Shown here in pieces: positions 3,046-37,901 of a stretch of 37,901 nucleotides of DNA. The stretch spans positions 1-37,901 of the forward strand of contig JAFGXD010000168.1 in the NCBI GenBank assembly GCA_016936815.1. Reading direction: 5' to 3'. Position 1 is the stretch's first letter. Each line of letters begins with the position of its first letter. The notes beneath the pieces are model-generated. The model did no database searches. It saw only the letters and a list, made by a program, of their open reading frames with translations, and was not told the origin of the DNA. This DNA comes from Bacteroidales bacterium. Lineage in GTDB: Bacteria; Bacteroidota; Bacteroidia; Bacteroidales; GWF2-38-335. A program made the position numbers and the translations under genes.

Positions 3046-5079
3046 CTAATCCATTCTAACACCAATAACCAGAATATCGTCTATTTGTTCGAAATGATCG
3101 TTGTTTTGAACAGGATCGTGATGAGCTTTCCAGTTTTCAATGGTTTCGTCTAATATCTTGAATTGTTCATGCATACCTCTTGGTTGGATTTCCAATAGCA
3201 ATTCCTTAAAGGTTTTATACATAAACTTCTTGCCTCTAGGACCTCCAAATTGGTCGGCATAACCATCGGAAAATACATAGATAGAATCACCTTTTACTAA
3301 TTCTATTTCCTTATTTGTAAACGAAACTATTTCCTCACCGTAAATACCAATTGGCATTTTGTCGGCTTTTATTTCGTAAAGAATATGTGTATCGTTTTCA
3401 ACAGTTTTGGCATCTTCAATAACCGGACTATCTTTTAGTCTAACCAAATACATTGGATTGTTTGCTCCCGCATATTGAATCGATTTCCCATTCTTTTCAA
3501 TAACTACCATAGCTATATCCATTCCGTCTTTTGCTTCACCTTCCTTACCGGTTTGCCTTAGAGCTTTTATTACTTGTGCACGCAATAGATTTAATATTTC
3601 GTTAGCGCTGTGTTTTGTTCCTTTGTTTACTATTTCGTTAAGAAAAGCAACTCCCAACATACTCATAAAGGCTCCCGGAACTCCGTGTCCTGTACAGTCG
3701 GCAGCAGCAACAATAACAGAATCTTCGTATTCTGTAAACCAGTAATAATCTCCGGAAACAATGTCTCTTGGTTTGTTAAGAATGAAATAAGAGTCTAAAT
3801 TTCTTCCTATATAATCTTCCGGAGGTAATATTGCTCTTTGAATTCTTTGCGCATAAACAATACTATCCATAATTTCTTCCTTTTGTTCTATAATTTGGTC
3901 GCGCTGTATTTCAATAGCATCTCTTTGTGTTTCAATTTCTTCTTTCTGCTGACGAATTTCTTCGTTTTGCTCCATTATGGCAATATTCTTTTCGTTTAAG
4001 AGCTTATTTGCTTTCTTCTTAATCTTGTATGAACGGTAAATAAAATATCCTAAGCCGGCCATTACCAGTGAAAGAAAAACAAAAAGGTAAATAATAAGAT
4101 TTTGTGTGTTTACTTTATCTATCAGGTGAGATAATTCCGATTCTTGCTTCTTAATCTCAGCTTTCTGTTTTTCAAGAAATGCTTCCTGAACTTTAATTTC
4201 TTTTGTCTGCTTTTCTAGTTTTGCTGTTTTTTCGTCTAGTTCTTTGGTTTTTCTTTCCAGTTCAGCCGATTTTTCGTCTAGTTCTTTGGTTTTTGCGGCA
4301 AGTTCTTCTTGTTTCTGATTAACATCATTAATAAGTCTGGTAAGCTCCATCCTCTGCACATCAATCATTGCTTGTTGCTTCTTTATTTCTTCTCGCTGAA
4401 CTTCTATTCTTTTTGTTTGTTCAGCAATTTCCTTCATTTGCTTTTCAATTTCAGCTTTTTGTTGCTCAATTTGTTTAGACTGTTGCTCAACAACCTGTTT
4501 TTCAGCTTCTAACAATTTCTCGGTGCGTTCGTAAAGTTCTTCCCAATCGGTTTTATTTTTTACAGAACCGGCAAGGAATAATGCGGGTAATACAAATCCT
4601 TCGGCTGTAACTTTTTTCTCGTTTATTTCATACCTTTTTATGCCTTTTGGATCTACAATGAAGTTAATCATTGATGTATGATACTCATAGTTTTCAGTTA
4701 TTAATAGAATTTTTTTGCCTGCTATTTTGTTTGAAGCCAAATAAATATCGGTTTTTGTTTCATGTTTTTCAAAATATAAAACCTGAATATTATCTGCCTC
4801 GTCTAATGAATTTAAGTGCACTATTTTTATTGGTTTTCCATGAACTGTTATTCTCTTAGCTGCCTCGGTATTTAATGCATCGAAAAGAGATTTGTCTTTT
4901 TCAATAATCCCCAGATTATACTCGGTAATACTTCCTTCATTTGGCCAGGTAACCTGACTTACAATATCAAGAATATAGCGTGAACGCGCTTCGTCGGTAA
5001 AGGTTTTTGTCTGTGCAAATGAACCGAATGAGTTCGTTAATAACACAAATAAGAACAAGACAGAAAATATGTTTTTCAT
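3046..5079 (-). CDS. YfiR-like (DUF4154) periplasmic domain + coiled coil + TM + SpoIIE/PP2C-type serine phosphatase
   Basis: Signal peptide; N-terminal YfiR-like region (ARSRYILDIVSQVTWP...VLYFEKHE...); long heptad coiled coil; TM IIYLFVFLSLVMAGLGYFIY; NKPRDIVSGDYYW...AADCTGHGVPGAFMSMLG phosphatase motifs. Confidence 0.88.
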   Translation of the reverse strand: MKNIFSVLFLFVLLTNSFGSFAQTKTFTDEARSRYILDIVSQVTWPNEGSITEYNLGIIEKDKSLFDALNTEAAKRITVHGKPIKIVHLNSLDEADNIQVLYFEKHETKTDIYLASNKIAGKKILLITENYEYHTSMINFIVDPKGIKRYEINEKKVTAEGFVLPALFLAGSVKNKTDWEELYERTEKLLEAEKQVVEQQSKQIEQQKAEIEKQMKEIAEQTKRIEVQREEIKKQQAMIDVQRMELTRLINDVNQKQEELAAKTKELDEKSAELERKTKELDEKTAKLEKQTKEIKVQEAFLEKQKAEIKKQESELSHLIDKVNTQNLIIYLFVFLSLVMAGLGYFIYRSYKIKKKANKLLNEKNIAIMEQNEEIRQQKEEIETQRDAIEIQRDQIIEQKEEIMDSIVYAQRIQRAILPPEDYIGRNLDSYFILNKPRDIVSGDYYWFTEYEDSVIVAAADCTGHGVPGAFMSMLGVAFLNEIVNKGTKHSANEILNLLRAQVIKALRQTGKEGEAKDGMDIAMVVIEKNGKSIQYAGANNPMYLVRLKDSPVIEDAKTVENDTHILYEIKADKMPIGIYGEEIVSFTNKEIELVKGDSIYVFSDGYADQFGGPRGKKFMYKTFKELLLEIQPRGMHEQFKILDETIENWKAHHDPVQNNDHFEQIDDILVIGVRMD
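4227..4294 (-). repeat. 42-bp-period in-frame repeat within the coiled coil
   Basis: TTTTCGTCTAGTTCTTTGGTTTTT occurs twice with 42-nt spacing (CGTCTAG at 4233 and 4275). Protein: ELDEKSAELERKTK / ELDEKTAKLEKQTK. Confidence 0.8.
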
Positions 5080-6419: not shown

Positions 6420-8081
6420 TTATTCAACAATAAAGTTTAACAAAAGTTCCTGACCAAAGTCGTATGGAAAATTAAGTATTTCTTTTTTTGTTTCAAAATC
6501 GAGGATAGAAATTTTGCCGTTTTTTCCCACTAATTCTCTGTTGCTGTTCCAATACCACCAGTGCATTACCATTCCGTCTTCGAGTTTGTCTGTAAATCTG
6601 AATTTGTAACAACCCGGTGTTAAAGAGATTTGGTGATTGTATTCGGTGGAGTCGGTGTAATTATTTGCTGAAAAAACCGGGTTTCCCATGGAATTGGTAA
6701 TTATTGTTTGATTTTCCTTTGCTCTACCTTTGTCGTTTGTTTCTATATGAATGATAAACTTCTGTGGTAATCTGGTGATTTCAGGAACAAGAGAACTTAA
6801 TTTGTTATTTTCTTTGTTTTCATCAATTTCCCCGTTAGGTAAAAGCAATTCGGCAAAAAATATTTTGCTCGAATAGTCGAATTCAGGAAGAGTAATTTCG
6901 GTAGTTTCCATAAATTTCAAAGCTCCTTTCCACTGATATTCAGATGTTTTTTTGGAGTTTGCAGAACCATAAACAATTTTTAGGCTGTAAAGAACATTTT
7001 TGCCCGAATTTCTTATTTTTATTACAGGATTGGCGCAAATAGGATTTATTCTGCTGTATTCATCTTTTTTGGAGGGGGCAATTATTTCAAGAATTTCGGC
7101 ATCGTTATTAAAATTTGCCTTTCCAAATTCGAAAAGCTGATGCGACATTCGGTACTCTCCACCTTTTTCGCCGTTGTTTTGGTAATTTTCAATAAAATAA
7201 TCTACGTAAATACTATCGTTTGGAAATCCGTAATCTGTTATGTTGAAATCATATTCATCTACTTTTGTTCCCGGACACCAGCCTGCACGGTTAAATGGCC
7301 ATGTTCCGCCCTGAGGATAAATTGGGTTAAAGCCGCAATCTTTCCAAACATTCCATCTAACAAATTTGTCTTCACCAAAGGAATATCCGTGGGTTTTATT
7401 ATCCCATTCGCAGCAGTTTTGCGGACCAAAGTGTCTGTGACCGGAGATTCTGGCTTTAATTGAAAATGTTTCTGCTTGTGAGTTAATTAGAAACCCTGTT
7501 TTTTGCAGGACTGAATCGTCTGCTAATTTTTCGTAAGTGTAAATACCGTTGGGCCAGATGTTTTTAACAGAAATAACATTTCGGGGAGGTGTTCCGGAGA
7601 TAAAAAGGAAGGTCAAGTCTAGTAATTCCTGATTATTACCGGTTTCGAGCAAAATATTGCCTTTAAGAATTGGGGCATAATCTGTAATATCGTACTCCCA
7701 CTTCCAGCCATCTTCTCCGCCCATTTTTAGTCGTTTTCCGTATGGGGTAACAAAGCTTCCTATTTCAAATTTTTCGAAATCTCCGTTTTTTGAGATATGT
7801 AACACGGTGTTTGTAAAATAGTCCCATTCGCCACAAGGAAAACTATCGCCTTTAGTTCTTTCGTCGCATTTAAGATGCTGAACCATAATTATTTTTCTCC
7901 ATTGTCCTGAATCGGGGAAATGAACAGTTTTTTTATAGGAAGCGCCCCAACCTTCCGGACTGGGGTCTTCCCAAGTAAAAGCTTTTACAATTATTGTGTC
8001 TTGCGATTTAGAATTGAAATTAAGCAACAATAAAAAGGCAACAATAAAGAGGAATGTTTTGAATTTACAATCCAAATTCAT
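6420..8081 (-). CDS. Peptide-N-glycosidase F-related secreted protein
   Basis: Signal peptide after M17 of the ORF. Blocks align by eye with PNGase F: CGEWD (cf. CDEWD), [10 protein letters not shown] (cf. EIGRFITPYW), [16 protein letters not shown] (cf. ISGWGHAKPY..GCAEWC), RAGWCPG (cf. RAGWCPG). Confidence 0.85.
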
Positions 8082-9321
8082 TCTTAATTTTGTCAACATA
8101 GTCAAGCTTTTCCCATGTAAAAAGTTCAACTTCCATTTCTTTTTTTCCTAGATATGGCGATTCGAAAGTTTTTTTCACAATTCTGCAATCTCTTCCCATG
8201 TGGCCATAAGCTGCAGTTTCGCGGTAAATAGGATTTCTTAATTTCAATCTTTCTTCAATTGCTGCAGGTCTTAGGTCGAATAATTTGGCAACTTTGTTTG
8301 CAATAATACTATCGTTTTCTTTAACTTTTGCTGTTCCGTATGTATTAACAAAAATGTTAATTGGTTGAGCTACTCCAATTGCGTATGAAAGCTGAACAAG
8401 AATCTCATCGCAAATGCCTGAAGCTACAAGGTTTTTGGCAATATGTCTGGCCGCATAAGCAGCAGAACGGTCAACTTTACTTGGATCTTTTCCCGAAAAT
8501 GCTCCACCACCGTGAGCACCTTTTCCGCCGTAGGTATCAACAATAATTTTTCTGCCTGTAAGTCCGGTATCGCCGTGAGGACCGCCAATTACGAACTTTC
8601 CTGTTGGGTTAACATGTAGAACAAAATCGTTTTTAAAAAGAGTTCTAACACGTTCGGGAAGTAATTCTATTGTTCTTGGAATAAGAATATTAGCAACATC
8701 GTCTTTAATTTTAGCAAGCATTCTTGCATCATCTTTATCAAAATCGTCGTGTTGAGTGGAGACTACAATGGTATGAATTTTTTCCGGACTATGGTCGTCG
8801 GAATACTGAATAGTTACCTGCGATTTTGAATCTGGACGAAGGTAGGTCATTAGTTTTCCTTCTTTACGAATTTTTGCCAGTTCCATAAGCAGGATGTGAG
8901 AAATGGTAATAGCCAGAGGCATATAATCGTCGGTTTCGCGGTTTGCATATCCGAACATCATTCCCTGGTCTCCGGCACCCTGATCCATACGGTCTGTTTT
9001 GTCTACGCCACGGTTAATATCGGGGGATTGTTCGTGAATAGCAGCTAGAACTCCACAGGAATTGCCATCGAACTGGTATTCGCTTTTTGTGTAGCCAATT
9101 TGGTTAACAACTTTACGTGCAGTTTCCTGAACGTCAATATAGATTTGTGACTTTACCTCGCCGGCCAAAATAACCTGTCCGGTTGTTACAAGGGTTTCGC
9201 AAGCTACTTTTGAATTTGGGTCGAAAGCCAAAAATTCGTCCAACAAAGCATCTGAAATCTGATCGGCAACCTTATCCGGGTGACCTTCGGAAACAGATTC
9301 GGAAGTAAATAAATATGACAT
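8065..9321 (-). CDS. metK: S-adenosylmethionine synthetase
   Basis: [63 protein letters not shown]. Confidence 0.98.
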
Positions 9322-9603: not shown

Positions 9604-10647
9604 CTATTTAATCTCCTTCACAATAAAAATATACGTTGGAAAATGGTCTGAATAGCCACCTTTGTATGTGCTTCCTACGTAAGTTCTTAGTGGGTAGCCT
9701 TTGTACTGACCTTCGGCTTGCATCAGAAATTTCTTATTGAAAACAAAAGATTTATGAAAAATATATCCATTGTTCTCATCTTTTACCAAGCCGGGACTTA
9801 TTATTATTTGGTCGAAAAGATTCCATGCATCTCGGTATGCCAAAGAGCCAACTCCTTTTTTAAATAAACCTTCCATTGTATTGTAAAAAACACCTTCTTT
9901 TACTTCTTCTTTTTCGCTTACCGTTTTAAGATGCAGTTTTACACTTTCGTTGTTGGGATCGTCGTTTAAGTCGCCCATTATTATAATTTTAGCGTTTTTG
10001 TCTAAGTTTAATATAGAATCGCATATAGACTTGGTTAAATCGGCAGCAGCATTACGCAATGGCCTGCTTCTTTTTTCACCACCTCTCCTCGATGGCCAAT
10101 GGTTAACAATTACATGAATCATTTCTCCATCGAATTCTCCCGAAACCAAAAGCTGGTCTCTGGTATAGAAATCATCCATTCCCTCTATTTTAAGAGTGTA
10201 ACTGGCCGAATTTTTTAATTTAAAATACTTTGGCTGAAAAATTAATCCTACATCAACGCCTCGTTTGTCGGGAGAATCGTAATGAACTATTTCATATTTT
10301 CTGCCTTTTAACTTTTCCTGCTTAACCAAATCTTCAACAACAGTGCGGTTTTCTATTTCCGAAATTCCCAAAATCGCAACGCCGTCAGGAGTTAAATCTG
10401 TTCCAATCTGAGAAATAACATTAGCCATATTATCGAGTTTCTCGTAGTATTTGGCAGAATTCCACTTTTTGTCTCCCAAAGGGGTAAACTCTGTGTCTCT
10501 TACATCTTCGGTGTCCAATGTATCAAACAAATTTTCGAGATTGTAAAAACCAATACAACCTATTCTGAAATTTTTTTCGTTTTGTGCTGTTGAATTTAAA
10601 CTAATAGTAAAAATTAACGCAATGGTAATAATGATAGTCCTCTTCAT
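9604..10647 (-). CDS. Secreted endonuclease/exonuclease/phosphatase (EEP) family protein
   Basis: Signal peptide; ISEIENR, VNHWPSRRGGEKRSRPLRNAAA, IIMGDLNDDPNN, GYSDHFPTYI motifs. Confidence 0.9.
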   Translation of the reverse strand: MKRTIIITIALIFTISLNSTAQNEKNFRIGCIGFYNLENLFDTLDTEDVRDTEFTPLGDKKWNSAKYYEKLDNMANVISQIGTDLTPDGVAILGISEIENRTVVEDLVKQEKLKGRKYEIVHYDSPDKRGVDVGLIFQPKYFKLKNSASYTLKIEGMDDFYTRDQLLVSGEFDGEMIHVIVNHWPSRRGGEKRSRPLRNAAADLTKSICDSILNLDKNAKIIIMGDLNDDPNNESVKLHLKTVSEKEEVKEGVFYNTMEGLFKKGVGSLAYRDAWNLFDQIIISPGLVKDENNGYIFHKSFVFNKKFLMQAEGQYKGYPLRTYVGSTYKGGYSDHFPTYIFIVKEIK

Positions 10648-10672
10648 TTTGTAATTGTTATTTTTCAGTTTA

Positions 10673-10705
10673 CAAATCTACGTATTATTACTAGCATGTA
10701 CCCAA
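10673..10705 (-). promoter_or_regulatory. Candidate promoter for EEP gene (TTG-N22-TAGATTTG)
   Basis: Minus strand TAGATTTG at 10673-10680 with TTG at 10703-10705; spacer slightly long. Confidence 0.4.
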
Positions 10706-10778
10706 TTGTGTTGGACATTTTTTGTTAATTATTTATTAATTTTTTTTCCTGTTCAACATTTTGCTTATTATTTTGGCG

Positions 10779-10786
10779 TATCTTTG
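10779..10786 (+). promoter_or_regulatory. Candidate -7 element (TATCTTTG) for TonB receptor operon
   Basis: TATCTTTG matches TAnnTTTG 23 nt before the ATG at 10809; no convincing -33 element. Confidence 0.4.
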
Positions 10787-10808
10787 CCGTCTTAAGAAAA
10801 CCCATATA

Positions 10809-13352
10809 ATGAAACGAAAATTTTTACCTTTAATTCTATCCGTACTGCTACTTACGCCTTTTACAATATTTGCGCAGGTTCAACCGGATTCAACTCAGGC
10901 CGTTCAAGTGGCAATTCCAACAATTACTATTTCAGATTCCGAATTGGAAAACGAGAACGAATCACACGATTTGTCGGGATTATTGCAATCATCAAGCGAT
11001 GTGTTCGTATCAACGGCTAATTTCACTTTTTCTCCTTCCCGTTTTAGAATTCGGGGATACGATTCAGAAAATCACTCGGTGCATATTAATGGTCTTCCTG
11101 TTAACGATGTGGAAACCGGACGTGCATACTGGTCTTCCTGGGGAGGTTTAAACGATGCTGTTAGAAACAAAGAAGTTAATGATGGTGTTTCTATGTCCGA
11201 TTTCTCTTTTGGTGGTGTTGGAGGTTCTACCAACATTATTGCCAGAGCATCCGAGTACAGAACAGGTACACGATTAACCTATTCAGTTTCCAACCGTTCT
11301 TACAGAAACAGAGTAATGCTAACTCATTCAACCGGAATGAATGATAAAGGCTGGGCTTTTACTTATTCAGGATCTAGACGTTGGTCTGAAGAAGGTTATG
11401 TTGCCGGAACTTTCTACGATGCATGGAGCTATTTCTTTTCAGCAGAGAAAAAAATTAACTCGGCTCACTCTTTAGGTTTTACTGTTTTTGGCGCTCCTAC
11501 AAAAAGAGGAAAACAAGGTGTTGTAACTCAGGAAGTTCTCGATTATGCCGGCACAAACTATTATAATCCTTATTGGGGTTACCAGAACGGTGAAAAACGT
11601 AACGCCGCTGTTTCAAACTTCCACCAACCAATGGCTTTGTTTACTCATTACTGGAAAATAAACGAAAAATCGAAACTTACTTCTTCAGCAGGTTATTCAT
11701 TCGGAAGAGGAGGTTCAACTGCACTTAATTGGGATAACACAGGCGATCCTCGTCCCGATTACTATCGCTACTTGCCTTCTTACTGGTCGGAACCAATGGA
11801 CGATGAAGATTTGGCTTATCAATCGTACTACACAAACTTATGGACAGGCGACGAAGCTCCTCAATTAAATTGGGACGCCATGTATAATGCCAATTATAAA
11901 AACCTTTATACTATTGAAAATGTTGATGGTACAGCTAATAATCTTACCGGATACCGATCAATTTACATGATTGAAGACAGAAGAAATGATGTAACAAAAA
12001 CTATGATTAGCTCCGTTTACAATTCGAACCCAAACGAAAAAATGGCTATTGTTGGAGGTGTTAATGCTGTTTTGTTTAAAGGACGTAATTTTAAAACTGT
12101 TAGCGACCTTCTGGGTGGAGATTTTTGGTTAGATATAGACAAATTTGCTGAAATGGACGCTAATAATCCTGCTGTTATGGATAATAATCTGGATGTTCCT
12201 AACCATGCTGTTTACGAAGATGATGTTTTTGGTTACGATTACACAACTAACGTAAACAAATACGAAGGTTTCGGACAAGTTTCATACAGCCTTAAAAAAT
12301 TCGATTTGTTTTTAGGTATAGATCTTTCTCAAACTCAATTTTGGTACACCGGAAATATGCAAAACGGAAAATTTCCCGATGATTCCTACGGAGATAGTGA
12401 AAAACAAAGCTTTTTTAACTATGGCTTGAAAACCGGAATTCTTTACAAAATAACAGGAAGAAACTTTATTTCAATAAACGGAGCTTACCTTAACCGGGCT
12501 CCATTCATTAGAAACGCATATATTTCCCCAAGAACAAGAGATCATATTGTATCAGGTCTCGAAAGTGAAACAATTATTTCAGGAGATGCTAATTACATTT
12601 ACAGAGGACCACTTGTAAAAGCAAGACTTACAGGTTTCTACACTGAGTTTAACGACAGAGTTTGGGCAAGAAGTTTTTACCACGACGAACTAGCCACTTT
12701 TGTAAACTATATGATGACAGATGTTGATGTTATTCACGGAGGAGGTGAATTAGGTGTTGAGGTGAAGGCTTCACAAACAATTACAATTCAGGCAGCGGCA
12801 TCTAAAGCCGATTATTACTACAATTCAAGACCTAAAGTAACCATAGCGAGAGATAACGACTCCGAAATTCTTGCTGAAAACAGAACAGTTTTCTTTAAGG
12901 GATACAAATTGGGTGGAATGCCTCACACTGCTATTTCCGGAGGCTTAAAATATAACTCGCCAAAATTCTGGTTTGCCGGTATTAACGCCAACCTTTTCAG
13001 CGATATTTATGTGGAACCAAACCCGGAAAGACGAACCCTTGAAGCTTTGGAAGGTATTTACCCCGACGACCCTCAGTGGGATTTAATTCTGGAACAAGAA
13101 AAACTTCCCGATTATTTTACATTAGACATTTATGGTTATAAATCGTGGAAAGTAAAAAAATACTTTATTGGCCTTTATGTTGCTGTTGGTAACATCCTTA
13201 ACAAAACCGACATTAGAACAGGCGGTTTCGAACAACTTCGTTTCTCTACATCTTACGCCAGATTGCATACCGAAGGAATAGATAAATTCCCTTCAAAATA
13301 TTTTTATATGTTCGGAAGAACTTATTTTGTAAACATCAACTTTAGTTTTTAA
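10809..13352 (+). CDS. TonB-dependent outer-membrane receptor (plug + beta-barrel, no CarboxypepD_reg domain, no SusD partner)
   Basis: Signal peptide; plug-like FRIRGYDSENHSVHINGLPVNDVETGRAYWSSWGGLNDAV; C-terminal aromatic Phe ending a beta strand (YFVNINFSF). ATG at 10809 preferred over 10761. Confidence 0.9.
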   Translation: MKRKFLPLILSVLLLTPFTIFAQVQPDSTQAVQVAIPTITISDSELENENESHDLSGLLQSSSDVFVSTANFTFSPSRFRIRGYDSENHSVHINGLPVNDVETGRAYWSSWGGLNDAVRNKEVNDGVSMSDFSFGGVGGSTNIIARASEYRTGTRLTYSVSNRSYRNRVMLTHSTGMNDKGWAFTYSGSRRWSEEGYVAGTFYDAWSYFFSAEKKINSAHSLGFTVFGAPTKRGKQGVVTQEVLDYAGTNYYNPYWGYQNGEKRNAAVSNFHQPMALFTHYWKINEKSKLTSSAGYSFGRGGSTALNWDNTGDPRPDYYRYLPSYWSEPMDDEDLAYQSYYTNLWTGDEAPQLNWDAMYNANYKNLYTIENVDGTANNLTGYRSIYMIEDRRNDVTKTMISSVYNSNPNEKMAIVGGVNAVLFKGRNFKTVSDLLGGDFWLDIDKFAEMDANNPAVMDNNLDVPNHAVYEDDVFGYDYTTNVNKYEGFGQVSYSLKKFDLFLGIDLSQTQFWYTGNMQNGKFPDDSYGDSEKQSFFNYGLKTGILYKITGRNFISINGAYLNRAPFIRNAYISPRTRDHIVSGLESETIISGDANYIYRGPLVKARLTGFYTEFNDRVWARSFYHDELATFVNYMMTDVDVIHGGGELGVEVKASQTITIQAAASKADYYYNSRPKVTIARDNDSEILAENRTVFFKGYKLGGMPHTAISGGLKYNSPKFWFAGINANLFSDIYVEPNPERRTLEALEGIYPDDPQWDLILEQEKLPDYFTLDIYGYKSWKVKKYFIGLYVAVGNILNKTDIRTGGFEQLRFSTSYARLHTEGIDKFPSKYFYMFGRTYFVNINFSF

Positions 13353-13377
13353 TATCATGAAATTTAATTATAATAAA

Positions 13378-14637
13378 ATGAATAAATCAGCCAAATTATT
13401 AGTTTTCCTTGCATTGGCAGGAATTATTTTCACAGGATGTGTGAAGCAGGAATTTGATCAGCCCGAAAAGCAAAATATTCCTGAGGGAACAAAAATTACT
13501 ATTGCAGAATTGCGACAAATGGCAATAGATAGTGTAACAAATGTTCCGGGCGCCACTAAGTATCGTTTCGAAGAAGATTATTCGTTATATGCAACAGTTA
13601 CAATGGACGAAGCTCGTTCGGCAAATCTTTACAAATCTGTTTACGTGCAGGATGGAACAGGTGCTATTAACCTTCAGCTTTTATATTCCGGTAGTCTTTA
13701 TGAAGGCGATTCTATTCGTATTCAACTTAAAGGACTTTCTTTGTTGCCATACAACGGCGCTTTGCAAATTGACTCCGTAGATATTGAAAAAAATATTGTG
13801 AAATTAGCTACCAAAAGAACAGTTGAACCTGTTTCTGTTAGTATTACGGATATTATGACCGGCGCTTACGAAGCTACTCTTGTTAAAATTGAAAACGTTC
13901 AGTTTGTTGAGGGTGAAATAGGTCAGACCTGGGCTGCTTTTGAAGTCAATACAAACAGAACAATAGAAGATTGCGATGGTCAAACTATTATTGTTAGAAC
14001 AAGCGGTTGGTCTAATTTTTATGGCGACACTCTTCCTTCCGGAAATGGCTCTATGGTTGCAGTAGCAAGTGTTTACGGTTCCGACCTTCAGGTTTACGTT
14101 CGTTCCTTGGAAGAAGTTAATATGACAGCCAATCGTTGCGGAGAATCTGCCGGCACTACCTATCTATCTAAAGATTTTGCCGATAACAATGTAACTTCCG
14201 GTGGATGGGTTACAAAAAATGTAACCGGTGCCGTTAACTGGTATATTTATGAAGCCGCAGGCGATCCTTGTGGTGCTATAAAGAACTATATTAGTGGAGC
14301 AAATCAGGCTTGCGAAACCTGGCTTATTTCTCCTGCAGTTGATTTAACTTCAGCAACAAATCCTTACTTTAAATTCAGAAACGCTTGTTCTTACAGCGGT
14401 GCGGAAATGGAGGTTTTTGTTTCTACTAATTACGATGGCACAAGTGCTCCATCTACAGCAACATGGACTCCTCTTTCTTATGTTTTATCGGCAGGATTTT
14501 TTGCATGGGCCGATTCAGGAAACATAGATTTTAATGCATACAAAACTTCAAACGTTCGTGTTGCTTTTAAATACACCGGCTCTAGTACCGACGGAAGAAC
14601 TTGGGAAGTAGATGATATTAAAATAAAAGGTGAATAA
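13378..14637 (+). CDS. DUF5689 (OB-fold-like) lipoprotein with C-terminal choice-of-anchor J domain
   Basis: Lipobox LALAGIIFTGC; ITIAELRQMA...YATVTMDEARSANLYKSVYVQDGTGAINLQLL OB-like DUF5689 region; C-terminal SKDFADNNVTSGGW...CETWLISPAVDL...VAFKYTGSSTDGRTWEVDDIKI. Confidence 0.88.
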   Translation: MNKSAKLLVFLALAGIIFTGCVKQEFDQPEKQNIPEGTKITIAELRQMAIDSVTNVPGATKYRFEEDYSLYATVTMDEARSANLYKSVYVQDGTGAINLQLLYSGSLYEGDSIRIQLKGLSLLPYNGALQIDSVDIEKNIVKLATKRTVEPVSVSITDIMTGAYEATLVKIENVQFVEGEIGQTWAAFEVNTNRTIEDCDGQTIIVRTSGWSNFYGDTLPSGNGSMVAVASVYGSDLQVYVRSLEEVNMTANRCGESAGTTYLSKDFADNNVTSGGWVTKNVTGAVNWYIYEAAGDPCGAIKNYISGANQACETWLISPAVDLTSATNPYFKFRNACSYSGAEMEVFVSTNYDGTSAPSTATWTPLSYVLSAGFFAWADSGNIDFNAYKTSNVRVAFKYTGSSTDGRTWEVDDIKIKGE

Positions 14638-14641
14638 ATTA

Positions 14642-14674
14642 AATACCTCTTGCCTTTGGTAGGGGGTATTTTTT
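14642..14674 (+). terminator. Rho-independent terminator-like hairpin after DUF5689 gene
   Basis: AATACCTCTTGCC-TTT-GGTAGGGGGTATT, followed by a T run. Confidence 0.75.
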
Positions 14675-14707
14675 ACAATAAATAATAACTAAAAAAAATA
14701 ATTGCTT

Positions 14708-16003
14708 ATGAAAAAATTCTACTCATTAATTATTCTGTTGACTTTTGCTTTTGCTGCAAATGCTCAATATCTTTCAAAAGATTTCGCCGATAGTGATATT
14801 AACTCAGGCGGATGGACTACTCAGAATGTTACCGGAGCTGTAAATTGGTACATTTATGTAGCTTCAGGAAATCCTTGTGCTGCAATTAAAAATTGGGACG
14901 GAACAGTTAACAATGCTTGCGAAACATGGTTAATTTCTCCTTCTGTAGATTTAACTGCCTCAACAGAACCCGTTCTAACATTTAGAAATGCTTGTTCTTA
15001 TGATGGAGCTGTTCTTCAGGCTTACGTTTCCACCGATTATTCCGGAACCGGATTACCTGCAACTGCAACATGGACTGAACTTACTTTCGACCTTTCTGCA
15101 GGATTTTTTGCTTGGGCAAATGCCAATATTGATTTATCTGCTTACAAAACCAATGGTGTTTACATTGCTTTTAAATACACCGGTTCAAGTACAGATGGAA
15201 AAACTTGGGAAGTTGATGATATTAAAATCGACGAACCTACTACTGTTGAATTAGTTTATGCAACCCTTCCTCATACAAAAGATTTTGCCGACAACAGCCT
15301 TACTTCTGGTGGCTGGACAAACCCAATTGTTACAGGAACAACCAACTGGTTTGTTGCTGAACTTGGTGGCGATTATTTTGCAAAAATTACAAACTATTCA
15401 GGTGGTGCAAATACTGCAGCAGAATCTTGGTTAGTTTCTCCGGGAATAAAAATCGTTGGTACACCAAGTGTAACAATGTCGTTCCGTAATGCTTACAAAT
15501 ACGAAGGCGATCCTTTAAAATTAATGGTTTCAAGTAATTATTCAGGAGAGGGAAATCCTAATACTGCTACTTGGACAGATATTTCTTCTGATGCAACTTG
15601 GTCACCAGGCGAATGGGCTTTTGTTGGCTCAGGAGATATTACTTTACCATCTTTTACTAACGACACAATTTATGTAGCTTTTAAATACACAGGTTCCGCT
15701 ACCGATGGAAGTACTTGGGAAATTGATGATATTCAACTTACCGGAAGCTCAAACATAGATGAAAATGTTGTGGAAAATTTTAAGGTTTTCCCAAATCCGG
15801 CAAACGAAACTATAAACCTTGAAGGAAAAACAGCTATTCAATCTGTTCAGATTATTAATATTGCGGGAGAAATTGTTTACGATTCATTCTGCAATTCAAA
15901 AACATGGAAAATAGATGTTAGCAATTACGAAGCCGGAGTTTATATGGTTAAACTTAACTTGCTTGAAGGTTCTTCAATTACAAAAAGAGTTTTTGTTGAA
16001 TAA
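14708..16003 (+). CDS. Secreted protein with two choice-of-anchor J domains and T9SS type-A sorting domain
   Basis: Signal peptide MKKFYSLIILLTFAFAANAQ; two SKDFAD/TKDFAD...AFKYTGSxTDGxTWE(V/I)DDI modules; C-terminal FKVFPNPANETINLEG...GVYMVKLNLLEGSSITKRVFVE. Confidence 0.9.
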   Translation: MKKFYSLIILLTFAFAANAQYLSKDFADSDINSGGWTTQNVTGAVNWYIYVASGNPCAAIKNWDGTVNNACETWLISPSVDLTASTEPVLTFRNACSYDGAVLQAYVSTDYSGTGLPATATWTELTFDLSAGFFAWANANIDLSAYKTNGVYIAFKYTGSSTDGKTWEVDDIKIDEPTTVELVYATLPHTKDFADNSLTSGGWTNPIVTGTTNWFVAELGGDYFAKITNYSGGANTAAESWLVSPGIKIVGTPSVTMSFRNAYKYEGDPLKLMVSSNYSGEGNPNTATWTDISSDATWSPGEWAFVGSGDITLPSFTNDTIYVAFKYTGSATDGSTWEIDDIQLTGSSNIDENVVENFKVFPNPANETINLEGKTAIQSVQIINIAGEIVYDSFCNSKTWKIDVSNYEAGVYMVKLNLLEGSSITKRVFVE

Positions 16004-16048
16004 ACTTACAGCGCTTTTTAGCGTATAAAATTTATAAAATTTGACCAG

Positions 16049-16079
16049 AGTCACCGGTAATAAATTTTTACCGGTGACT
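16049..16079 (+). terminator. Strong inverted repeat (12-bp perfect stem), possible terminator or mRNA-stabilising hairpin
   Basis: AGTCACCGGTAA-TAAATTT-TTACCGGTGACT; weak U-tract (TTGAGTCTT). Confidence 0.55.
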
Positions 16080-16129
16080 TTGAGTCTTATGGAATCTGCT
16101 GATTCACCGTTTTCTAAAAAAATTGACCT

Positions 16130-17983
16130 ATGAAGATTTTAACATTATTACTGGCACTTTTCTTGTTTTCGGGTATTTCTGCCCAAAGAACAGGTTTATA
16201 TAACGGAACCGAAAATCTTACGCAAGATGATTTAAAAGCAGTTTTGCATCAAATAGTAAGAAACCATGTTCCACATTCTTACGATATGGCTAAGGAAATT
16301 CTAAAAGAATCCGATGCCGACCCAACTACTCCCGGAAATGTAATTATGGTTTATACAGGTCGCTCTCAAGATGGCGACAGCTACGGAACTGCAGGAAACG
16401 ATTTGCAACGAGAACATGTTTGGGCAAAATCTCATGGCGACTTTGGCGAAGATCCTCCAACGGGCTCCGATGCCCATAATCTTAAACCTGCAGATGCTTC
16501 AGTTAATGCAAGCAGAAGTAATTTAGATTTCGATTGGGGTGGAACTCCACATTCAGAAGCTACAGACTGCTCCTACGATTCGGACTCATGGGAACCCAGA
16601 GATGAAGTAAAAGGCGATGTTGCAAGAATAATTTTCTATATGGCAACACGCTACGAAGGAACAAGCGGAGAGCTCGATTTGGAACCTGCAGACTATGTAA
16701 ATACTTATCCTTATTCTATTCATGGAAAGCTTTCAACACTTTTGGAATGGAATAACCTCGATCCTGTTGATGAATTCGAAATGAACAGAAACAACATGAT
16801 AGAAAAATGGCAGAAAAACAGAAATCCATTTATTGATAATCCGCATTTTGCCAATTTAATATGGAACGATGGAACATTGCCGGTAATTACTTTTTCAAAT
16901 TTTAATATTAGTCCGGCTTTTCCAATTTACACAGATAACCCAACAATTAGTGTAAATATTTCTTCGTCTGCCGGAGCAATTAGTTCAGCTATTCTTTATT
17001 GGGGAACTACTTTGGGAAACATTAATAACGCTGTGAATATGAGCGGAACAGGAACTTTTACGGCAAATATTCTCGCACAGGCACAAAACACCAGGGTTTT
17101 CTACAAAATTGTTGCAAGCGACGGAACAAATTCACAAACATCAATAATGTATTCTTATTTGGTTCCCGAATATTTTTCGGGCTCAGTTACCTCAATTAGA
17201 GCTATTCAGGGAGAAACAACATCATCACCATACGCAGATCAAAATGTTTCAACAACAGGTGTTGTTACAGGTGTATTTCCTACCGGATATTTTATTCAGG
17301 ATGGATACGGACCATGGTCGGGTTTGTACATTTACGATTCGTATAACACACCAATGTTGGGAGACAGTATTGTGGTAAGCGGATTGATAACAGAATATTT
17401 TGGAATGACTGAAATGAAAAATATCTCTGCTTCCTACCTTTGCGGCGAAAACATGAATTTGCCTCCCCTTACTGTAATTCAAGCAGGTGAAGCTGCCGAA
17501 CAGTACGAAAGCGTTTTGGTAGGCGTTGTTGGAGCTAACTGCACCGATGCAGATGCCGGATATGGAATGTGGACAATAAACGACGCTTCCGGCTCTGTAT
17601 TTGTTCATAACAACACAAGTTATTCGTACACACCAACAATTGGTCAGCAGTACACAGTTACAGGGCCACTAAACTACACTTTTGGAGAATTTAAAATTGA
17701 ATTAAGAACTTCCGCCGATGTTCAACTGGGTTTGGGAATTGAAGAATCTGCAAACAATGGTCTTATTGTATATCCTAATCCGGCTAACGATTTATTATTT
17801 TTAGACAGTAACGAAATAATTTTCATAAAAGTTGAAATCTTTGATATAAACGGAAAAAAACTTTCTTTAGATTTTAATAAGGAAACAAAAAGCATTAATA
17901 TTGAAAGTTTGAAACCGGGATTGTACAACATTAAACTGGAATCGGATAAAAGTATTTATTATTCTAAATTTGTAAAACAGTAA
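16130..17983 (+). CDS. Extracellular endonuclease I family nuclease with OB-fold-like region and T9SS type-A sorting domain
   Basis: LQREHVWAKSHGDFGEDPPTGSDAHNLKPADASVNASRSNLDF (Endonuclease I H-N-N-type motif); STTGVVTGVFPTGYFIQDGYGPWSGLYIYD OB-like region; C-terminal LIVYPNPANDLLFL...GLYNIKLESDKSIYYSKFVKQ. Confidence 0.93.
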   Translation: MKILTLLLALFLFSGISAQRTGLYNGTENLTQDDLKAVLHQIVRNHVPHSYDMAKEILKESDADPTTPGNVIMVYTGRSQDGDSYGTAGNDLQREHVWAKSHGDFGEDPPTGSDAHNLKPADASVNASRSNLDFDWGGTPHSEATDCSYDSDSWEPRDEVKGDVARIIFYMATRYEGTSGELDLEPADYVNTYPYSIHGKLSTLLEWNNLDPVDEFEMNRNNMIEKWQKNRNPFIDNPHFANLIWNDGTLPVITFSNFNISPAFPIYTDNPTISVNISSSAGAISSAILYWGTTLGNINNAVNMSGTGTFTANILAQAQNTRVFYKIVASDGTNSQTSIMYSYLVPEYFSGSVTSIRAIQGETTSSPYADQNVSTTGVVTGVFPTGYFIQDGYGPWSGLYIYDSYNTPMLGDSIVVSGLITEYFGMTEMKNISASYLCGENMNLPPLTVIQAGEAAEQYESVLVGVVGANCTDADAGYGMWTINDASGSVFVHNNTSYSYTPTIGQQYTVTGPLNYTFGEFKIELRTSADVQLGLGIEESANNGLIVYPNPANDLLFLDSNEIIFIKVEIFDINGKKLSLDFNKETKSINIESLKPGLYNIKLESDKSIYYSKFVKQ

Positions 17984-19722: not shown

Positions 19723-22002
19723 TTATTCAAGAATAATTTTCTTTGTAATTATTTCATTTTCAGTTGAAAGTCGAACAACATACATGCCGGTTTTTTCCAA
19801 TTGATTATTGGAAAGACGATAAGAATATTCTCCCGGATTAAGATTTTCACCAAAAAGGTCAAGAACTTCTTTTCCAAGCATATCGTAAACTTTTAAGCTT
19901 ACATATTCGGCTTTTTTGATGTTGAAAAGAATTTTTGCTTCCTCATTAAATGGATTGGGCTGAACCCTAAGGTCGAAACATTCATTCATATCTTCAATTC
20001 CAACAGGCTCTGATTCTATATTTATATTGTCTATGTATAAATTGTTTCCGCCATTGTTAATAAACACAAATTTAAATCTTACGTTGGAATAGTCTGTATA
20101 AGCCATAATGCTTATAGATTCATTTCTCCAATCGTCTTGAGAAGCCGGAGCAAATGAGGTTTCTTGCAAATCAACAGTTGCAAGATTAAAACCGATTTTG
20201 TTGTATCGCAAGAACCAGGTTTGTCCACAATCGTATGAAAGATAAACCTGCAGACCATCGTAAATGTCTGAAGTATCGGTAGTTCCAAAAATTGGATTGC
20301 TTGTAATGGTTCTTTTTCCTGCGTAAGCAATTCTAAATTTTAACCTTGGTGTAACATCTGGAGAAATTTGAGTCAAGTCGTAGGGTTCAGTAATAAACTC
20401 GTCTGCCGAAAATCTTGCATTAAGTGCGTAGTTTGCAAGTCTCAAACAACGTGTGCCTTCGTAAGCAGCAGTATCGGTTTCTTCCCAAGAAAGCCCTTCG
20501 GCATTCTGTATAATATAGCTGTTTGTTGCTCCCGGAGTTTCAAAAGTCTCCATTAAAGGAAGATCGTTTGTGTTTTCAGTATTATACACATAAATTATTC
20601 CCTCTTTTGTTAGTTCGTTATTACCTGAAGCATTTATTGCATTTAAGGTTACGCTGTAAACTCCTTCTGTGTCGTATGTTACTGTGGGATTTTGTTCTGT
20701 TGAACTTCCAGGAGTTCCACCTTCAAAAGTCCATTCCCAAGCATCGGCTTCTCCGTTAAACGACCAATCGGTAAAACTTACCTGGCCACCTTCGCAAGTC
20801 ATAAAATTGCTCCAGTAGAAATCTGCCACAGGGGCACACAATTCAGGAGATTCCAAAACTCCTGTGGCAACAAGGTTTTCGTAAGACCACAAATTTCTTC
20901 TTGTAGATTCGAGGGTTGAATTAATTCTTTCGAGCTGACCAACAGAAAAAAGATTTTGACACCACCCCGAGGCATAATCCATAAAATTTTGTACCATATC
21001 AGGTTCGTCAGGGCTATCTGTACTACAAGTGTTTTGGTCTAAAGGAGGACAGCCTTGAGTGGCTTCAAAAACCGGGGGAGTGTCGTCAATTTCGTCACCG
21101 TTAATTCCCAAAAATGGCATTGAAGTACAATTATCCATTCCAAGAATTGTAGCAACAAGGTTTTGGAAAGGATGGTATAAATTAAAAAAGTGACCTGATT
21201 CATGGGTAAAAACACGATTTTGGTTATTCATCCCAATTCCTGCAAAATCTGTTGCAGTTCCAATTGTTCCAACACAATCGTGACGAATAAGAACGCCGTC
21301 TAATAAAGTATCACCTCCTGTTCCGGAAAGCATATTATCGGGGGTAAATGGTGAAAGTCCACCAATTAAGGCGCCTTCGGGAAGTGTCATTCCTTCCGGA
21401 TAAATAAAACTAACTGCATAAACGTTCATATACATGCTATAAGGCCAGGAGTTTTCACGCATTACATTATATTGAGCGTAATCTGTTGCGGGGTCGTAAA
21501 CTCTGTCAATTCCATCGGTGCAATTTCCATAAGGGTCAATTTGAGCTAATCGGAATTCCATCTGACAATCGGCAGCACGAGGCTTAAAAAGCGGATAGGT
21601 TGCAGCAGTATCCTCATTCTGACGGCTATAATCAAGATTGATTTTTTCAATTGCATCTAAAATTTGTTCTTTTGAAATGTTCTCTATTCCTCCTTTGTGA
21701 ATAACATGAAAAACAACAGGAATAATTCTTTTACCATCAATTAGGGTGTCGGTTTTTGAATTGTTTCTGAAAGCATTAGGATCCTTTCTCAGTTTTGCAA
21801 TAATTTGTTTTACATTTTCTTCATGAACAAGATATTGATTCATAATTTCAGGGTTTTTCCTGATATTTTGGTTAACAACCTCGTCGATATAACAAGGCAT
21901 GTAGTTGTTATTGTGGTGTTTATGTCCACAATTATGTTCCTGAGCAAAGCACGGCCAAGCCAGAAACATCAGGCAAATGTTGGTGAGTAAGAAGTTTTTC
22001 AT
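19723..22002 (-). CDS. Secreted M43-like (pappalysin family) zinc metalloprotease with PKD domain and T9SS type-A sorting domain
   Basis: Signal peptide; RVFTHESGHFFNLYHPF (HExxHxxxxxH); PKD-like SFNGEADAWEWTFEGGTPGSSTEQNPTVTYDTEGVYSVTL; C-terminal LRVQPNPFNEEAKILFN...GMYVVRLSTENEIITKKIILE. Confidence 0.93.
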   Translation of the reverse strand: MKNFLLTNICLMFLAWPCFAQEHNCGHKHHNNNYMPCYIDEVVNQNIRKNPEIMNQYLVHEENVKQIIAKLRKDPNAFRNNSKTDTLIDGKRIIPVVFHVIHKGGIENISKEQILDAIEKINLDYSRQNEDTAATYPLFKPRAADCQMEFRLAQIDPYGNCTDGIDRVYDPATDYAQYNVMRENSWPYSMYMNVYAVSFIYPEGMTLPEGALIGGLSPFTPDNMLSGTGGDTLLDGVLIRHDCVGTIGTATDFAGIGMNNQNRVFTHESGHFFNLYHPFQNLVATILGMDNCTSMPFLGINGDEIDDTPPVFEATQGCPPLDQNTCSTDSPDEPDMVQNFMDYASGWCQNLFSVGQLERINSTLESTRRNLWSYENLVATGVLESPELCAPVADFYWSNFMTCEGGQVSFTDWSFNGEADAWEWTFEGGTPGSSTEQNPTVTYDTEGVYSVTLNAINASGNNELTKEGIIYVYNTENTNDLPLMETFETPGATNSYIIQNAEGLSWEETDTAAYEGTRCLRLANYALNARFSADEFITEPYDLTQISPDVTPRLKFRIAYAGKRTITSNPIFGTTDTSDIYDGLQVYLSYDCGQTWFLRYNKIGFNLATVDLQETSFAPASQDDWRNESISIMAYTDYSNVRFKFVFINNGGNNLYIDNINIESEPVGIEDMNECFDLRVQPNPFNEEAKILFNIKKAEYVSLKVYDMLGKEVLDLFGENLNPGEYSYRLSNNQLEKTGMYVVRLSTENEIITKKIILE

Positions 22003-24557: not shown

Positions 24558-25229
24558 TCAATACCTCATATCCTCAAGAATTTTATCGAAACCCTCTTTA
24601 AATTTGTAAACTGTAATTTGTTCTCTGAATTCTATTTCAATAATTTGCAGAAGAATAAGGTCAATTAGTAATTGTTCGGCATCCTGCTTTTTCATTCTTG
24701 TAAGTTTAAGGAGTTTGGGAAGGGAGATTTCCTTTTTTCTGTCAAGATAATCGAATAAAAGCCTTTCGTTTTCTCTAAATTCGATAAAGACAGGTTTGCC
24801 AAATTTTTCTCTCTTCCACACCTGAAGCTGAATGCGGTTTACAAGCAGATTTTTATCTCCGGTTCTTATGTAAGCCAACCACTTACCTTCTTCATTTTTA
24901 GCGTAATGCGGCATTTTGTCGCTTTTGTTTATATCAATTTCAAGAACGATTTTTCCTTCAACTTTCCACTCCTTGGTTTTAAAAATTATTTCGGGTTGAG
25001 AGTACATATTTGCTGCTGCTTCAACCATATAGAATTCTTCGTCGCTTCTAACTCCAGCTATTGCACCGTTGTCTTTTACACCAATTAGCAACTTGCCTCC
25101 TGCTGTATTGGCAAAAGCAACTAAAGAGCGTGCAATTTTTCTGGAATCGCTAATCTCGAATTTAAAATCCTGTTGCAAATGCTCCCCTTGTGCAATTAGG
25201 TTTCTTATGTAGTTATCTTGTTTAAGCAT
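24558..25229 (-). CDS. AlbA_2/Schlafen-like DNA-binding domain protein (putative transcriptional regulator)
   Basis: EHLQQDFKFEISDSRKIARSLVAFANTAGGKLLIGVKDNGAIAGV signature; C-terminal winged-helix-like region. Confidence 0.82.
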   Translation of the reverse strand: MLKQDNYIRNLIAQGEHLQQDFKFEISDSRKIARSLVAFANTAGGKLLIGVKDNGAIAGVRSDEEFYMVEAAANMYSQPEIIFKTKEWKVEGKIVLEIDINKSDKMPHYAKNEEGKWLAYIRTGDKNLLVNRIQLQVWKREKFGKPVFIEFRENERLLFDYLDRKKEISLPKLLKLTRMKKQDAEQLLIDLILLQIIEIEFREQITVYKFKEGFDKILEDMRY

Positions 25230-36763: not shown

Positions 36764-36794
36764 TTGCGATTGTCATATACATAATATATTTTTG
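36764..36794 (+). promoter_or_regulatory. Candidate promoter for dprA (TTG-N20-TATTTTTG)
   Basis: TTG 36764-36766, 20-nt spacer, TATTTTTG 36787-36794; 19 nt before the ATG. Confidence 0.6.
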
Positions 36795-36812
36795 CGTTCG
36801 AAAACAAATATA

Positions 36813-37901
36813 ATGAGCCAAAAATATCAAATAGCATTAAGTTACATAAGAAGTCTGGGACCTGTAATGGCTAAAAGACTTGTAGCCTATACGGGCACTT
36901 TGGAGGCTGTTTTTGAAGAAAAAATGGGGGTTTTACAAAAAATTCCCGGAATAGGGCAAATAGTAGCAAAAGAAATAATAAACTCCAAAGATGAAGCAAT
37001 AGCCTCTGCAGAAAAAGAACTTGAATTTGTCGCAAAAAACAAACTCAAAACCCTGTTTTATCTCGACAGAAATTATCCATCGAGGCTTCAGCATATACCC
37101 GACGCTCCTTTGGTATTATATTATAAGGGTTTACCTCAGTCAAACGATAGTAAAATATTATCTGTAGTTGGTACAAGAAATGCAAGTTCAAATGGATTGG
37201 ATGTTTGCGAAAGAATAATCTCCGATTTGGCTTCACATCACCCCGATTTGGTAATAATTAGCGGATTGGCTTACGGAGTTGATATTTGCGCTCACAAAGC
37301 CGCCTTACAAAATAAGCTTAGAACTTACGCTGTTTTGGCTCATAAACTAAACATGATTTATCCAAACATTCACGAGCAAACAGCTGAAAAAATAATACTG
37401 GAAGGAGCAGTAATTTCGGAATGTAATAGCAGAAGTTTATTCGATAAATACGGATTTGTTAAAAGAAACAGAATAGTTGCCGGCATGGCTGATGCTACTT
37501 TAGTTATTGAATCGGGAGAAAAGGGTGGGTCTTTAATAACTGCTGAATTAGCTCTTTCTTATAACAGAGATGTGCTTGCGGTGCCCGGAAGACCTTCTGA
37601 TGCAAGTTCCAAAGGTTGCAACAGGTTAATAAAAACCAACCGTGCCGCAATGGTAGAAACAGCCGAAGACATTGAATATATAATGGGATGGACAATCAAC
37701 AAGAGAAATACAGCTTTGCAAAAAGCTCTCTTTATTGAACTTAACGAAGAGGAAGAAATAGTATTGGATATTGTAAAAAAGCAAGGTCCAATAAGTATAG
37801 ATTTCATAAGCCTTCAAACAAATCTTCCAGTTAGCAAAGTTTCTCCGGTATTGTTAAGCCTTGAATTTAAAAACCTTATCAGAACAAGGCCTGGAAATTG
37901 T
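36813..37901 (+). CDS. dprA: DNA-processing protein DprA, partial (runs off the window end)
   Basis: Open from ATG 36813 through 37901 (363 codons, no stop), absent from the ORF track because it is unterminated. VVGTRNASSNG; VIISGLAYGVDICAHKAAL; AVPGRPSDASSKGCNRLI. Confidence 0.95.
   Translation, partial: MSQKYQIALSYIRSLGPVMAKRLVAYTGTLEAVFEEKMGVLQKIPGIGQIVAKEIINSKDEAIASAEKELEFVAKNKLKTLFYLDRNYPSRLQHIPDAPLVLYYKGLPQSNDSKILSVVGTRNASSNGLDVCERIISDLASHHPDLVIISGLAYGVDICAHKAALQNKLRTYAVLAHKLNMIYPNIHEQTAEKIILEGAVISECNSRSLFDKYGFVKRNRIVAGMADATLVIESGEKGGSLITAELALSYNRDVLAVPGRPSDASSKGCNRLIKTNRAAMVETAEDIEYIMGWTINKRNTALQKALFIELNEEEEIVLDIVKKQGPISIDFISLQTNLPVSKVSPVLLSLEFKNLIRTRPGNC

What the first reader, a model, noticed from the sequence alone, without database searches (positions are those of the whole stretch)
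9604..17983. Candidate secreted nucleic-acid degradation and uptake locus (two nucleases, OB-fold lipoprotein, TonB receptor)
A secreted EEP nuclease/phosphatase is divergent from a cluster encoding a TonB receptor, a DUF5689 OB-fold-like lipoprotein 25 nt downstream, a T9SS-sorted adhesin-like protein and a T9SS-sorted endonuclease I. The TonB receptor has neither an N-terminal CarboxypepD_reg domain nor a SusD partner, so it is not a classical SusCD glycan system. The inferred model: cell-surface nuclease cleavage, binding by OB modules, import through the TonB receptor, and phosphate/nucleoside release by the periplasmic EEP enzyme. apt, for adenine salvage, is elsewhere in the window.
Basis: partly seen in the sequence, partly recalled or inferred. 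Interest (0 to 1): 0.7.

Follow-up and report, generated by a model that had tools for sequence, protein, structure and literature searches.

The report
TonB-type DNA uptake locus, Riemerella-like
This gene cluster is a relative of an outer-membrane gene pair that a duck bacterium needs to take up DNA for natural transformation, so it is more likely a DNA-import door for gene exchange than mainly a way to eat DNA, and it comes with a conserved nuclease-family gene whose role nobody seems to have tested.

Summary
The conserved core is smaller: a divergent EEP nuclease gene, a TonB receptor, then a DUF5689 lipoprotein. In loci picked only by the receptor, DUF5689 is the next gene in 88/99 and divergent EEP the upstream neighbour in 71/96. 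The receptor/DUF5689 pair is homologous to RA0C_RS04915/RA0C_RS04920 of Riemerella anatipestifer, where deleting either gene abolishes natural transformation (PMC8459023). I located that locus in a held genome (published comEC primers match exactly): comEC, two genes, EEP, receptor, DUF5689. Window proteins match at 42, 32 and 27% identity. Secretin is absent from the genomes tested; DprA lies in the window itself. Twenty-six Bacteroidia ComEC proteins lack the usual nuclease domain, so the untested EEP enzyme is a candidate for the missing entry nuclease. Endonuclease I (near 7 of 133 loci) and the adhesin are local additions. Best reading: a TonB-driven, pilus-independent outer-membrane DNA importer for transformation (confidence 0.72), perhaps also used for feeding. 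It is a new member of a barely described kind; the EEP partner and the spread beyond Flavobacteriaceae are the new points.

The parts
9604..10647 (-). EEP (Exo_endo_phos_3) secreted nuclease/phosphatase-family enzyme; candidate periplasmic entry nuclease
   Evidence: PF19580 E=8e-133; conserved divergent neighbour; expected catalytic residues kept in at least 105/106 homologues
10648..10808 (.). Divergent intergenic region between EEP and receptor genes; presumed shared promoter region
   Evidence: position only; no promoter shown
10809..13352 (+). TonB-dependent receptor, orthologue of RA0C_RS04915; proposed outer-membrane DNA channel
   Evidence: Plug; 32% identity, E=6e-145 to the Riemerella receptor; only match of the Riemerella receptor in this genome; beta-barrel model pTM 0.85
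13378..14637 (+). DUF5689 + choice-of-anchor J lipoprotein, orthologue of RA0C_RS04920; proposed surface DNA binder
   Evidence: PF18942 E=2.7e-43; choice_anch_J; E=9e-20 to the Riemerella protein; model pLDDT 91.5
14708..16003 (+). T9SS-sorted protein with two choice-of-anchor J domains; lineage-specific accessory
   Evidence: first domain 67.5% identical to that of the lipoprotein
16130..17983 (+). T9SS-sorted endonuclease I; lineage-specific accessory
   Evidence: PF04231 and Por_Secre_tail; near only 7 of 133 loci
36792..37901 (+). DprA, the cytoplasmic transformation factor of the same genome
   Evidence: PF02481 E=3.3e-71 and DprA_WH; the only DprA match in the genome

Best explanation
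The core of the locus is an outer-membrane DNA importer that serves natural transformation without a type IV pilus. The DUF5689 lipoprotein, on the cell surface, binds duplex DNA with its OB-like part. The TonB-dependent receptor passes the DNA through the outer membrane, driven by TonB. In the periplasm the divergently encoded EEP enzyme nicks or degrades one strand. Single-stranded DNA then passes through ComEC, which in these bacteria has no nuclease domain, to DprA and RecA. Shown in a relative: receptor and lipoprotein are each essential for transformation, and TonB mutants transform poorly. Shown here: homology, synteny, co-occurrence, absence of secretin. Inferred: DNA as direct cargo, surface exposure of the lipoprotein, the role of the EEP enzyme. 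Endonuclease I and the T9SS adhesin are local additions that may trim DNA or feed the cell.
For: Markerless deletions of RA0C_RS04915 and RA0C_RS04920 abolish transformation in R. anatipestifer (PMC8459023). The held locus L103 is that place: exact comEC primer matches, gene order comEC-x-x-EEP-receptor-DUF5689 fitting the locus tags, the published domains. Window proteins match it at E=2e-99, 6e-145 and 9e-20; the Riemerella receptor has one match in this genome. Three-gene synteny over 133 loci and co-occurrence of EEP with the receptor, 22/22 versus 3/15 same-class genomes. TonBA mutant lowers transformation without an iron-uptake defect (PMC8383284). No secretin. DprA in the window, ComEC and NamZ/DUF1343 in the genome. 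26/26 Bacteroidia ComEC lack the lactamase nuclease domain.
Against: No transformation of this organism is known. Lipoprotein identity to the Riemerella one is only 27%. DNA transport through a TonB receptor has not been shown directly. Flavobacterium johnsoniae has all the homologues but was not transformable under the conditions tried (PMC8459023). The HHH protein essential in Riemerella was not found in this incomplete assembly, though a homologue is in the congener. A surface endonuclease in the same cluster fits digestion better than transformation. ComEC also lacks the nuclease domain in genomes without the locus.
Confidence: 0.72

Rival explanations
1. Nutritional system: surface nucleases cut DNA or RNA, the DUF5689 protein binds the pieces, the receptor imports oligonucleotides, and the EEP enzyme releases phosphate or nucleosides.
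For: Endonuclease I and the T9SS adhesin follow in the same orientation here, in the congener G001 and, for endonuclease I, near six loci of other lineages. EEP enzymes can be phosphatases (family knowledge).
Against: The conserved core does not include endonuclease I or the adhesin. The orthologous pair is essential for transformation in Riemerella. No nucleoside transporter or nucleotidase sits beside the locus.
Confidence: 0.17
2. The receptor and lipoprotein import another ligand (glycan, peptide or cofactor), and the loss of transformation in Riemerella is indirect.
For: The anchor J part folds like adhesin and carbohydrate-binding modules; the receptor's nearest solved folds are PQQ, copper and siderophore receptors; inactivating M949_1556, in the same lipoprotein family, is reported to alter antigenicity and pathogenicity of R. 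anatipestifer (Zou 2015, cited in PMC12566107).
Against: Both deletions drop transformation below detection, like comEC, dprA and recA mutants, while many other mutants in the same screen are only reduced. The conserved partner gene is a nuclease-family enzyme. The DUF5689 part has OB-like matches to the ssDNA-binding Teb1.
Confidence: 0.09

Closest known systems
R. anatipestifer transformation genes RA0C_RS04915/RA0C_RS04920 (PMC8459023)
   Same: Homologous receptor and DUF5689 + anchor J lipoprotein in the same order; homologous divergent EEP gene; no secretin; ComEC without lactamase domain
   Different: Window receptor lacks the CarboxypepD_reg domain; comEC is not adjacent; endonuclease I and a T9SS adhesin are added
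SusCD glycan importers of Bacteroidota
   Same: TonB receptor followed by a lipoprotein gene; works like a receptor with a surface lipoprotein partner (inferred)
   Different: No SusD domain and no CarboxypepD_reg here; different lipoprotein family; nuclease partner instead of glycosidases
Type IV pilus/secretin DNA uptake of other Gram-negative bacteria
   Same: Same presumed task at the outer membrane, ahead of ComEC and DprA
   Different: No secretin in G000, G001 or Riemerella
EndA of Streptococcus pneumoniae
   Same: A separate nuclease supplies strand degradation where the ComEC domain is inactive (PMC12455585); proposed analogous role for the EEP enzyme
   Different: Not the same Pfam family as the EEP enzyme; the EEP role is untested

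Membership tests
Riemerella-type transformation module | Receptor orthologous to RA0C_RS04915 | tested here: met
   E=6e-145; sole match in the genome; the reverse best match in Riemerella was not run
Riemerella-type transformation module | Adjacent DUF5689 + anchor J/DUF5017 lipoprotein | tested here: met
   below the NCBIfam lipo_M949_1556 cut-off (180.7 versus 475 bits)
Riemerella-type transformation module | CarboxypepD_reg domain on the receptor | tested here: not met
   variable among orthologues, so not treated as defining
Riemerella-type transformation module | ComEC, DprA and NamZ/DUF1343 in the genome | tested here: met
   ComEC is cut by a contig edge
Riemerella-type transformation module | Three-HHH periplasmic protein (RA0C_RS02645) | tested here: inconclusive
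   not found in the 95%-complete G000; homologue in G001
Riemerella-type transformation module | Genes required for transformation | not testable with these tools
   needs mutants of this organism or a cultured relative
SusCD system | SusD-family lipoprotein and CarboxypepD_reg receptor | tested here: not met
Type IV pilus DNA uptake | Outer-membrane secretin | tested here: not met
   controls ring in six genomes
EEP nuclease/phosphatase superfamily (PF19580) | Family match and expected catalytic N, E, H, D, N, D, H residues | tested here: met
EEP nuclease/phosphatase superfamily (PF19580) | DNase activity rather than phosphatase activity | not testable with these tools
   needs enzyme assays

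The most novel reading that the evidence does not exclude
The EEP enzyme, the TonB receptor and the DUF5689 lipoprotein form one dedicated, pilus-free DNA-entry machine spread across the class Bacteroidia, in which a TonB-dependent receptor carries duplex DNA and the EEP enzyme is the entry nuclease that replaces the nuclease domain missing from ComEC.
Probability: 0.35. Interest if true: 0.82.

Novelty: new member of a known kind. Interest (0 to 1): 0.62.

Why it matters
How Bacteroidota bring DNA across the outer membrane without a type IV pilus is open. This ties an uncharacterised cluster to the genetic evidence on that step from Riemerella, extends it from Flavobacteriaceae to many families of Bacteroidia, and names an untested third gene as a candidate for the missing nuclease. 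DNA would also be an unusual cargo for a TonB receptor, and the answer bears on how these bacteria exchange genes.

Tried and rejected
Sequence searches of solved structures gave nothing useful for the receptor (only a stretch of NOMO2) and only a carbohydrate-binding domain for the lipoprotein. The NCBIfam hit of the adhesin gene to a T9SS DNase family is far below its cut-off, so I do not call that gene a nuclease. metK beside the EEP gene is not a conserved neighbour (one other of 133 loci). The locally built DUF5689 profile does not match the endonuclease I protein. A phmmer hit to endonuclease I in L036 was not confirmed by Pfam. Promoter and terminator scans were uninformative. The only paper in the library naming DUF5689 is PMC8459023; preprints are not held, so later work may exist.

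Full report
WHAT IS THERE. The five genes of the finding are real and correctly placed. The EEP gene (9604-10647, minus) is Exo_endo_phos_3 with a signal peptide. Divergent from it are the TonB receptor (start most likely 10809), the DUF5689 lipoprotein (start most likely 13378, 25 nt after the receptor), a T9SS-sorted protein with two choice-of-anchor J domains, and a T9SS-sorted endonuclease I. The C-terminal domain of the lipoprotein is 67.5% identical to the first domain of the T9SS protein, which suggests a recent duplication.

WHAT IS CONSERVED. I collected 133 loci in three ways. The 17 and 15 loci found through DUF5689-type queries cannot be used to count DUF5689. In the 101 loci picked by the receptor alone (L076-L096 and L133-L212), DUF5689 is the very next gene in 88 of 99 with a known neighbour, and EEP is the divergent upstream neighbour in 71 of 96 (my hand split of the listing). 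The loci are not all independent (L038 and L203 look like the same contig). Named records include Bacteroidales, Saprospiraceae, Chitinophagaceae, Marinifilum and Flammeovirga. Endonuclease I is within four genes downstream in only 7 of 133. So the core is EEP, receptor and DUF5689; the endonuclease and adhesin genes are local additions, kept in the congener G001.

CO-OCCURRENCE. In a 148-genome sample of the phylum, 37 genomes belong to the same class. All 22 with the receptor have an EEP homologue at E<=1e-40; only 3 of 15 without the receptor do (Fisher P=2.5e-7; by genus 15/15 versus 3/13, P=2.2e-5). Where the EEP gene is not adjacent it is still in the genome, in several cases tens of kilobases away. 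Limits: relatedness is only partly controlled, the EEP profile was built from linked genes, paralogues exist (one in this genome, on contig C8), and EEP homologues also occur in other classes without a receptor match at the cut-off used.

LINK TO TRANSFORMATION. PMC8459023 reports that markerless deletions of RA0C_RS04915 (outer membrane, carboxypeptidase-regulatory domain) and RA0C_RS04920 (DUF5689 + DUF5017) leave no detectable transformation in R. anatipestifer ATCC 11845. Locus L103 (genome G238, one contig of 2,164,087 bases) is that place. The two published comEC qPCR primers (PMC8383284) match it exactly at 1366-1474. The gene order comEC, 145 aa, 542 aa, EEP, receptor, DUF5689 fits tags 04895 to 04920 in steps of five, and the domains are those in the paper. 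By that count the EEP gene is RA0C_RS04910, which the paper mentions once, as an upstream gene not affected by the insertion. Window proteins match at 42% (EEP, E=2e-99), 32% (receptor, E=6e-145) and 27% (lipoprotein, E=9e-20), and the Riemerella receptor finds a single match in the window's genome, this one. The Riemerella lipoprotein passes the cut-off of the M949_1556 family. The paper states that the RS04915 homologue was found only in Flavobacteriaceae; the loci here show a much wider spread.

REST OF THE MACHINE. No secretin is found in G000, G001 or the Riemerella genome, while six control genomes ring. DprA is in the window itself at 36792-37901. ComEC lies at a contig edge; NamZ/DUF1343 is present. 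A triple-HHH protein is missing from the fragmented G000 assembly, but a homologue is in G001. The tonBA mutation in Riemerella lowers transformation without an iron-uptake defect (PMC8383284), as a TonB-driven importer would predict.

THE NUCLEASE IDEA. Most ComEC proteins carry a beta-lactamase-like nuclease domain that removes the non-entering strand; pneumococcus, whose domain is likely inactive, uses EndA (PMC12455585). All 26 Bacteroidia ComEC proteins scanned, Riemerella's among them, have the OB and channel domains and no lactamase domain at E<=0.01, and none has an H-x-[HD]-x-D-H motif. The EEP residues expected to be catalytic are kept in at least 105 of 106 homologues. The Riemerella authors list the strand-degrading step as unknown. 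The EEP enzyme is therefore a concrete, untested candidate. Against it: ComEC lacks the domain also in genomes without the locus, and EEP enzymes can be phosphatases.

STRUCTURES. The receptor model (pLDDT 86, pTM 0.85) has about 22 barrel strands by my count, a small plug and a disordered N-terminal tail that could hold a TonB box; its best fold matches are classic TonB receptors (PqqU, Fiu, OprC, FecA). The lipoprotein model (pLDDT 91.5) has two groups of strands in the DUF5689 part that I read as OB-like, and a jelly-roll-like anchor J part; hits include gingipain adhesin domains, carbohydrate modules and the two-OB telomere protein Teb1 (low TM-score for the last). The OB reading of DUF5689 is thus moderately supported. 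Of 151 DUF5689 proteins, 126 have a lipobox-like cysteine, often followed by K and then acidic residues, which recalls surface-export signals of Bacteroidota lipoproteins (from memory, not tested).

VERDICT. Shown: homology, order, co-occurrence, absence of secretin, and genetics in a relative. Inferred: DNA as direct cargo, EEP as entry nuclease, surface location of the lipoprotein, role of the endonuclease and adhesin.

Noticed in passing
36792-37901: dprA lies at the right end of the same contig, about 23 kb from the receptor gene; in the Riemerella genome it is about 46 kb from the receptor.
   Followed up: partly
13378-16003: The anchor J domain of the lipoprotein is 67.5% identical to the first domain of the next T9SS gene and 46% to the second, so the domain was copied between a lipoprotein and a T9SS cargo.
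   Followed up: partly
L085:13551-19451: A second, different TonB receptor with a 554-aa protein of unknown family and a cadherin-like endonuclease I gene sits about 5 kb from the standard locus; it may be a true feeding version.
   Followed up: no
L037, L040, L044, L045, L134, L136 and others: Many orthologous loci carry two DUF5689 genes in tandem after the receptor.
   Followed up: no
6420-8129: Protein with a PNGase F C-terminal domain; its reading frame as listed overlaps metK by 65 bases, so its true start is probably downstream.
   Followed up: no
24558-25229: Schlafen/AlbA_2 domain protein, standing alone next to the phosphoribosyltransferase gene.
   Followed up: no
19723-22002: T9SS-sorted M43 peptidase with a PKD domain.
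   Followed up: no
L104-L116 (genus groups of family f43): NCBIfam lipo_M949_1556, named after a Riemerella gene whose inactivation is reported to alter antigenicity and pathogenicity, is the DUF5689 gene of this locus; this links DNA uptake genes to an attenuated mutant.
   Followed up: partly
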